DNA from: an uncultured Alistipes sp.
GTDB taxonomy: Bacteria > Bacteroidota > Bacteroidia > Bacteroidales > Rikenellaceae
Direction: 5' to 3'
Assembly (NCBI GenBank): GCA_947629705.1
Contig: CANREN010000004.1
Location: 55,086-119,085, forward strand
DNA: 64,000 nt
Both the position numbers and the translations under genes were made by a program. Of the stretch, positions 63,482-63,807 are shown one piece after another. The notes beneath the pieces were generated by a model. It ran no database searches and was not told where the DNA came from. It saw only the letters and a program-made list of their open reading frames with translations. Position 1 is the first letter of the stretch; each line of letters begins with the position of its first letter.

Positions 63482-63504
63482 CTCTCTTCGTAAGAGTGCA
63501 TACA
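63482..63504 (+). repeat. Left inverted repeat of putative invertible promoter
   Basis: CTCTCTTCGTAAGAGTGCATACA; exact reverse complement at 63785-63807. Confidence 0.9.
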
Positions 63505-63513
63505 AACGACAGA

Positions 63514-63544
63514 CAAAAGTACAAAACAAATTCATTTCGCCAAA
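63514..63544 (-). promoter_or_regulatory. Consensus Bacteroidetes promoter TTTG-N19-TACTTTTG reading leftward inside the invertible segment
   Basis: -7 TACTTTTG at 63521..63514, -33 TTTG at 63544..63541, spacing 19 nt. Confidence 0.8.
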
Positions 63545-63616
63545 TAAAATTCAATAAAAAAATTTTTTCAGCCCCCCCCCTCGAAAATTCAAGGCATTAA
63601 AAAACAACTGTTTACG

Positions 63617-63652
63617 TTTTTCCGTCGAGAAAAATTTTTTTCGACGGAAAAA
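63617..63652. terminator. Near-perfect 36-bp palindrome inside the invertible segment (bidirectional terminator-like)
   Basis: TTTTTCCGTCGAGAAAAATTTTTTTCGACGGAAAAA. Confidence 0.7.
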
Positions 63653-63784
63653 CGGGCGGAACGCACGGCCGCCGCATGTGCCGGAGGGCCCGGAAAGGCG
63701 GTTGTTGTGCGAAATGTTGTAAAAGTCGAGCAAATCACCGGTTTCTGCTGTTGCATTACGAAGAGAATCAACCTGTTGCAAAAG

Positions 63785-63807
63785 TGTATGCACTCTTACG
63801 AAGAGAG
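63785..63807 (-). repeat. Right inverted repeat of putative invertible promoter
   Basis: TGTATGCACTCTTACGAAGAGAG. Confidence 0.9.

What the first reader, a model, noticed from the sequence alone, without database searches (positions are those of the whole stretch)
63482..63807. Putative phase-variable invertible promoter, captured in the OFF orientation, upstream of the gene at the right edge
Seen directly: two perfect 23-bp inverted repeats (CTCTCTTCGTAAGAGTGCATACA / TGTATGCACTCTTACGAAGAGAG) bracket 280 bp with no convincing gene. Inside, beside the left repeat, is a full Bacteroidetes promoter (TTTG-N19-TACTTTTG) on the minus strand, facing away from the downstream ATG at 63971. Site-specific inversion would place TTTG at 63745-63748 and TACTTTTG at 63768-63775 on the plus strand, so transcription would start near the right repeat and run into the gene. 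I found no equally good plus-strand promoter between the segment and the ATG. The layout matches the known architecture of Bacteroides capsule/SusCD promoter inversions (established knowledge). The identity of the controlled gene and of the recombinase are unknown here.
Basis: partly seen in the sequence, partly recalled or inferred. Interest (0 to 1): 0.9.

Follow-up and report, generated by a model that had tools for sequence, protein, structure and literature searches.

The report
Invertible promoter beside a lost invertase
In a gut Alistipes genome, a promoter sits on a flippable DNA segment and points away from the gene for a large surface lipoprotein, so that gene is probably off, and all that remains here of the enzyme that should flip the segment is the tail of its gene.

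Summary
Two perfect 23-bp inverted repeats (63482-63504, 63785-63807) flank 280 bp that carry a full Bacteroidota promoter on the minus strand, pointing away from the gene at 63971. This is the OFF arrangement.

(1) The reading frame ending inside the left repeat (63365-63493) is the last ~42 codons of a tyrosine recombinase. In 11 of 11 Alistipes relatives with enough flanking sequence (58-94% identical to a full-length member), a similar repeat pair lies at the recombinase's stop codon. Its spacing is 181-316 bp, with a -7 box 4-14 bp inside one repeat; 5 point ON and 6 OFF. So this is a member of a known kind, a promoter inverton with a local tyrosine invertase. In this assembly the invertase is cut to a stub, and no other family member was found in the genome. 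(2) The gene cut off by the contig end (MKKLWRKVLA...) matches a family of ~1,000-1,130-residue surface lipoproteins that resemble Bacteroides phase-variable S-layer proteins.

Whether the switch still flips (in trans), is frozen OFF, or the stub is an assembly artefact is unresolved.

The parts
63218..63293 (+). tRNA-Pro (ggg); the gene upstream of the recombinase stub
   Evidence: ARAGORN; Rfam
63365..63493 (+). C-terminal stub of a tyrosine recombinase: (SGAG)MGHTSERTTQIYPTMLENSVIDNANRGILESLRCTLSS*, with the catalytic-tyrosine motif TTQIY; the rest of the gene is missing
   Evidence: 59-81% identity to recombinase C-termini in 27 other Alistipes genomes, E down to 3.4e-12; ATG at 63377; the four codons before it (AGC GGT GCG GGC) align with ATC AGT GCA GGT in L181 (read by eye)
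63482..63504 (+). left arm of the inverted repeat CTCTCTTCGTAAGAGTGCATACA; contains the stub's stop codon TAA (63491-63493)
63505..63784 (.). invertible segment, 280 bp
63514..63544 (-). Bacteroidota promoter: -7 box TACTTTTG (63514-63521) 9 bp from the left arm, 19-nt spacer, -33 box TTTG (63541-63544); points away from the gene
   Evidence: distance
63615..63654 (.). near-perfect palindrome/hairpin in the middle of the segment; possible two-way transcription block (inference)
   Evidence: -28.6 kcal/mol, z -6.9
63757..63767 (+). degenerate third arm copy TTACGAAGAGA, same orientation as the right arm
   Evidence: sequence; full-length third arms are seen in L175, L177, L178, L182
63785..63807 (-). 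right arm TGTATGCACTCTTACGAAGAGAG
63808..63970 (+). untranslated leader between right arm and gene, no promoter of its own found
   Evidence: its last 21 bases with the gene start match G174:C13 at 90%
63971..64000 (+). start of the controlled gene, MKKLWRKVLA..., cut by the contig end; probable large surface lipoprotein
   Evidence: (E 6.8e-13): homologues P0126 and P0127 carry exactly MKKLWRKVLA

Best explanation
This is a promoter inverton of an Alistipes species. A tyrosine recombinase encoded directly upstream, whose reading frame ends inside the left repeat, exchanged strands between the two 23-bp arms and turned the 280-bp segment round. In the present (OFF) orientation the single promoter, 9 bp inside the left arm, fires leftward, towards the recombinase stub and tRNA-Pro. 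After inversion it would lie 9 bp inside the right arm and drive a ~185-nt leader and the gene at 63971. That gene belongs to a family of ~1,000-1,130-aa outer-surface lipoproteins built like S-layer proteins. In this assembly the recombinase is reduced to its last ~42 codons and no relative of it was found in the genome. The segment can therefore flip only if another recombinase acts in trans; otherwise it is frozen OFF. Shown: repeats, promoter orientation, recombinase tail, the same layout with both orientations in relatives, homology of the gene start. Inferred: recombination itself, transcriptional effect, the function of the lipoprotein, and that the stub is a real deletion.
For: Perfect 23-bp arms far beyond chance, unique in the genome. 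Full promoter inside, none facing the gene. Stub homologous to recombinase C-termini, with synonymous changes more common than amino-acid changes against most homologues, no stop and no frameshift. In 11 of 11 relatives (58-94% identical to a full-length member, at least 250 nt of flank) an inverted repeat of 14-26 bp (10 perfect) starts within 22 bp before to 4 bp after the end of the recombinase stop codon. The spacing is 181-316 bp and TAnnTTTG lies 4-14 bp from one arm; 5 point ON and 6 OFF. The window's values (arm start 11 bp before the end of the stop codon, 280 bp, 9 bp) fall inside these ranges. Relatives' arms have a short dyad around 7 nt, e.g. GTTC-N7-GAAC; the window arm can be read as CTCT-N7-AGAG. 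Published IRs of Bacteroides and Parabacteroides tyrosine-invertase switches read the same way (GTTAC-N7-GTAAC, GCTAC-N7-GTAGC; PMC12118408). Gene start and leader match a 1087-aa lipoprotein gene in G174 at 90% over 51 nt; two homologues carry exactly MKKLWRKVLA.
Against: No reads were available, so no flipping was seen. The local recombinase is a stub and no other family member was found in the genome. Only 30 bases of the controlled gene are in the assembly, so its identity is by homology of its first 10 residues and leader. The dyad of the window arm also fits a 5-3-5 register, so the 7-nt core is not proved for it. The relative that shares the gene start (G174) has no inverted repeat there, so the switch is not a fixed feature of this gene.
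Confidence: 0.82

Rival explanations
1. Frozen relic: the invertase was deleted and the promoter is locked OFF; the lipoprotein is silent in this lineage or is read from elsewhere.
For: Only the last ~42 codons of the recombinase remain. No other member of its family was found in the own genome and no serine resolvase (PF00239); the other tyrosine recombinases include an Xer-type protein (L121), a 379-aa integrase only 22% identical (L122) and a short one (L123). Two relatives also have in-frame stops in the recombinase, G029 with 2 TAA and G145 with 1 TGA, yet keep perfect arms.
Against: Arms and promoter are perfect and the stub still reads cleanly, so any loss is recent. A recombinase may act in trans or lie in the ~5% of the genome that is missing.
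Confidence: 0.35
2. Still switching: a recombinase elsewhere in the cell, or in the unassembled part, flips the segment in trans.
For: Arms are identical over 23 bp. The contig ends 193 bp past the right arm, and two relatives' contigs end 129 and 143 nt after the recombinase stop, inside the expected segment; such breaks are expected when both orientations occur in one sample. One Bacteroides master invertase serves many sites (Mpi, as described in PMC12632263).
Against: Arm sequences differ between loci and no other copy of this arm exists in the genome, so no partner locus points to a trans recombinase.
Confidence: 0.35
3. Assembly artefact: the stub is a chimeric join of the tRNA-Pro flank to the recombinase tail, and the real genome carries an intact invertase.
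For: The genome is a fragmented assembly (26 contigs). The junction lies next to a G-run (about 63355-63363). In the relatives with this recombinase no tRNA lies within the fetched flank.
Against: tRNA-Pro is a place where integrases sit in other Alistipes (L028, L032, L038), so a real insertion with later deletion is plausible. No long shared sequence at the junction was seen.
Confidence: 0.22
4. Remnant of a mobile element integrated at tRNA-Pro; the repeats are unrelated to a promoter switch.
For: Integrases follow tRNA-Pro directly in L028, L032 and L038.
Against: Those integrases are another subfamily (28% identical to P0001). The stub's own family carries promoter invertons at its 3' end in 11 of 11 loci with enough flank. 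attL/attR would be direct repeats, not a perfect inverted pair around a promoter.
Confidence: 0.04

Closest known systems
Bacteroidales invertible promoters with a local tyrosine invertase, often ahead of UpxY/capsule operons (PMC8748976, PMC11892184, PMC12118408)
   Same: Recombinase directly upstream in the same orientation, inverted repeats with an internal dyad around 7 nt, segment of 180-345 bp, Bacteroidota promoter near one arm, surface gene downstream. Some Alistipes relatives here have UpxY next (NF033644 for L181).
   Different: The invertase is truncated to a stub, the arm sequence is unrelated to GTTAC/GTAAC, and the downstream gene is a lipoprotein, not UpxY.
Bacteroides thetaiotaomicron BT1927 phase-variable S-layer switch (PMC12548429, PMC12578637)
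   Same: Invertible promoter beside an integrase gene, mostly OFF in culture, controls a ~100-kDa surface lipoprotein.
   Different: Sequence homology of the Alistipes family to BT1927 was not tested (BT1927 sequence not at hand); no OmpA-like partner was seen after the gene in G174; an S-layer is not shown.
Mpi serine-invertase promoters of Bacteroides fragilis capsule loci
   Same: Promoter flip between inverted repeats.
   Different: No serine resolvase in this genome; tyrosine-recombinase tail at the arm.

Membership tests
Promoter inverton with local tyrosine invertase | perfect or near-perfect inverted repeats flanking ~100-400 bp | tested here: met
   23 bp, 280 bp
Promoter inverton with local tyrosine invertase | promoter of the host's type inside, near one arm | tested here: met
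   TTTG-N19-TACTTTTG, 9 bp from the left arm
Promoter inverton with local tyrosine invertase | intact tyrosine recombinase gene next to the repeats | tested here: not met
   only the last ~42 codons remain; intact in most relatives
Promoter inverton with local tyrosine invertase | same layout found in both orientations in homologous loci | tested here: met
   5 ON, 6 OFF of 11
Promoter inverton with local tyrosine invertase | both orientations in reads of one population | not testable with these tools
   no reads
Mpi-type serine invertase switch | serine recombinase encoded in the genome | tested here: not met
   PF00239 absent
BT1927-type S-layer switch | controlled gene is a ~100-kDa outer-surface lipoprotein | tested here: inconclusive
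   homologues are ~1,000-1,130-aa lipoproteins, but only 30 bases of the gene are present here
BT1927-type S-layer switch | protein built of tandem Ig-like domains able to form a lattice | tested here: inconclusive
   model of P0126 (pLDDT 81.6, pTM 0.43): helical N-terminus then many beta domains; Foldseek top hits include S-layer proteins Sap, SbsC, SbsB but also cadherins
Mobile element integrated at tRNA-Pro | direct repeats (attL/attR) and intact or related integrase | tested here: not met
   arms are inverted; the stub belongs to the inverton family, not the tRNA-Pro integrases

The most novel reading that the evidence does not exclude
In Alistipes, promoter switches are repeatedly turned into fixed ON or OFF states by loss of their local invertase while the recombination sites stay perfect. 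The window (truncated, OFF), G029 (two in-frame stops, ON) and G145 (one in-frame stop, OFF) would be three independent cases; locked phase variation would then be a common evolutionary outcome, or these sites would be served by a recombinase acting in trans.
Probability: 0.25. Interest if true: 0.5.

Novelty: new member of a known kind. Interest (0 to 1): 0.42.

Why it matters
It extends a well-studied Bacteroides surface switch to Alistipes, where the literature searches here turned up no description of this recombinase-inverton family, and ties it to an unnamed family of large S-layer-like lipoproteins. If the invertase loss is real, it gives a clean natural case to ask what becomes of a phase-variable promoter once its recombinase is gone.

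Tried and rejected
The SusC gene that begins contig C13 without its N-terminus was considered as the continuation of the cut gene. Its closest relatives start MKKLQKHFAV, not MKKLWRKVLA, so this was dropped. Other contig ends gave no convincing continuation. A degenerate pattern for MKKLWRKVLA found only the window in 180 Alistipes genomes. The own genome has no second copy of the lipoprotein; that empty answer has no positive control. Pfam and NCBIfam do not name the lipoprotein; sequence search of PDB gave only two weak, unrelated hits for its alignment. Inverted-repeat scan of 80 Alistipes and related loci around trmB found no orthologous inverton next to the tRNAs, so the element is not conserved at this place. 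Some more distant recombinases (54-57% identical: L186-L193) have no repeat at their 3' end and are probably other integrases.

Full report
What is there. The arms 63482-63504 and 63785-63807 are perfect 23-bp inverted repeats around 280 bp. They are the only such pair in the window, against a longest chance repeat of 15 bp in 40 resamples, and occur nowhere else in the genome. The promoter at 63514-63544 on the minus strand is one of seven full Bacteroidota promoters in 64 kb, where 0.12 are expected. Nothing promoter-like with two mismatches or fewer faces the gene on the plus strand between 63686 and 63975. By motif, the captured state is OFF.

The frame running into the left arm, 63377-63493, reads MGHTSERTTQIYPTMLENSVIDNANRGILESLRCTLSS*. 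This is the C-terminus of a tyrosine recombinase including the catalytic-tyrosine motif, with homology reaching about four codons further left (63365; by eye). It matches recombinase C-termini in 27 other Alistipes genomes with E down to 3e-12. Upstream lies only the tRNA-Pro terminator region: the rest of the gene is gone. In most comparisons with homologues, synonymous codon changes outnumber amino-acid changes in the stub, so if it is a real deletion it is recent.

Comparative proof of what it is. A full-length member (P0001, 398 aa including one residue before the start methionine; Arm-DNA-binding, SAM-like and Phage_integrase domains) was used to search 180 genomes of the genus. The organism is Alistipes by its nearest named neighbours. 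In every locus of 58-94% identity with at least 250 nt of flank whose 3' end carries the family's typical layout (L174-L176, L178-L185; 11 of 11) an inverted repeat sits at the recombinase stop codon: length 14-26 bp (10 perfect), spacing 181-316 bp, TAnnTTTG 4-14 bp from one arm; five ON and six OFF. Recombinases of 54-57% identity (L186-L193) have no such repeat. The window's 23 bp, 280 bp and 9 bp fit the series, with the promoter OFF. Most relatives' arms have a dyad around 7 nt; the window arm can be read as CTCT-CTTCGTA-AGAG, though a 5-3-5 reading also fits. Published repeats next to tyrosine invertases in B. thetaiotaomicron, B. xylanisolvens and P. distasonis (PMC12118408) show the same 7-nt spacing when read this way (my reading of their printed consensus). 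Downstream genes in the relatives vary: UpxY antiterminators (NF033644 for L181), lipoproteins and others.

The controlled gene. The window ends at the contig end. Its last 51 bases match G174:C13:13908-13958 at 90%. The gene there is a 1087-aa lipoprotein beginning MRKIWRKLLAVALVGALVSNVACKDYDDDI. Among 51 homologues, P0126 begins with exactly MKKLWRKVLA and P0127 carries it after a short upstream extension. The family is unnamed in Pfam and NCBIfam. An AlphaFold model of P0126 (mean pLDDT 81.6, pTM 0.43) shows a helical N-terminal part and a string of beta domains; Foldseek hits include S-layer proteins Sap, SbsC and SbsB as well as cadherins, so S-layer-like is suggested, not shown. The known Bacteroides parallel is BT1927, a 100-kDa phase-variable surface lipoprotein (PMC12548429, PMC12578637).

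Mechanism. Shown: repeats, promoter orientation, recombinase tail, both orientations among relatives, gene-start homology. Inferred: inversion of 63482-63807 would place the promoter 9 bp inside the right arm, start transcription in that arm and drive the lipoprotein through a ~185-nt leader; the hairpin at 63615-63654 lies upstream of the promoter in both orientations and could block read-through from the tRNA side. No terminator consensus was scored there.

What stays open. In this assembly the invertase is a stub. No other family member was found in the genome and there is no serine resolvase; the other tyrosine recombinases found are an Xer-type protein, an integrase 22% identical to P0001, a short one and two not classified further. 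The switch may be driven in trans, frozen OFF, or the stub may be a chimeric join beside a G-run. tRNA-Pro hosts integrases of another subfamily in related genomes, so a real insertion followed by deletion is plausible. Two relatives have in-frame stops in the recombinase but perfect arms, hinting that loss of the invertase may recur.

Verdict. A new member of a known kind, well placed by comparison. The unusual features are the missing invertase and the probable S-layer-like target.

Noticed in passing
window 626-747, 3089-3223, 15288-15389, 31045-31249, 47608-47749, 48172-48258, 48238-48443: Interspersed repeat of ~100-206 bp in seven places in the window and 44 matches in the 1.59-Mb genome; origin not worked out.
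   Followed up: partly
window 3838-3950 (-) and 34713-34823 (+): Two copies, 91% identical over ~113 bp, each carrying the identical full promoter TTTGTTTTGCCCTCGCTTATTCGTATCTTTG.
   Followed up: no
window 31296-31357: SAM-II riboswitch (RF01726) close to one copy of the interspersed repeat.
   Followed up: no
L175, L177, L178, L182: A third arm copy lies ~84-113 bp inside the left end of the inverton, in direct orientation with the left arm; in L175, L178 and L182 the OFF promoter lies between them, so recombination between those two would delete the promoter.
   Followed up: partly
L181 (G029), L184 (G145): Recombinase genes with in-frame stops (2 TAA; 1 TGA) beside perfect arms: possible further cases of invertase loss.
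   Followed up: partly
G000 contig C13 start (L139) and P0005: SusC of the own genome and P0005, 96% identical over most of its length, differ in a stretch of the plug domain: a mosaic suggesting recombination between SusC copies.
   Followed up: no
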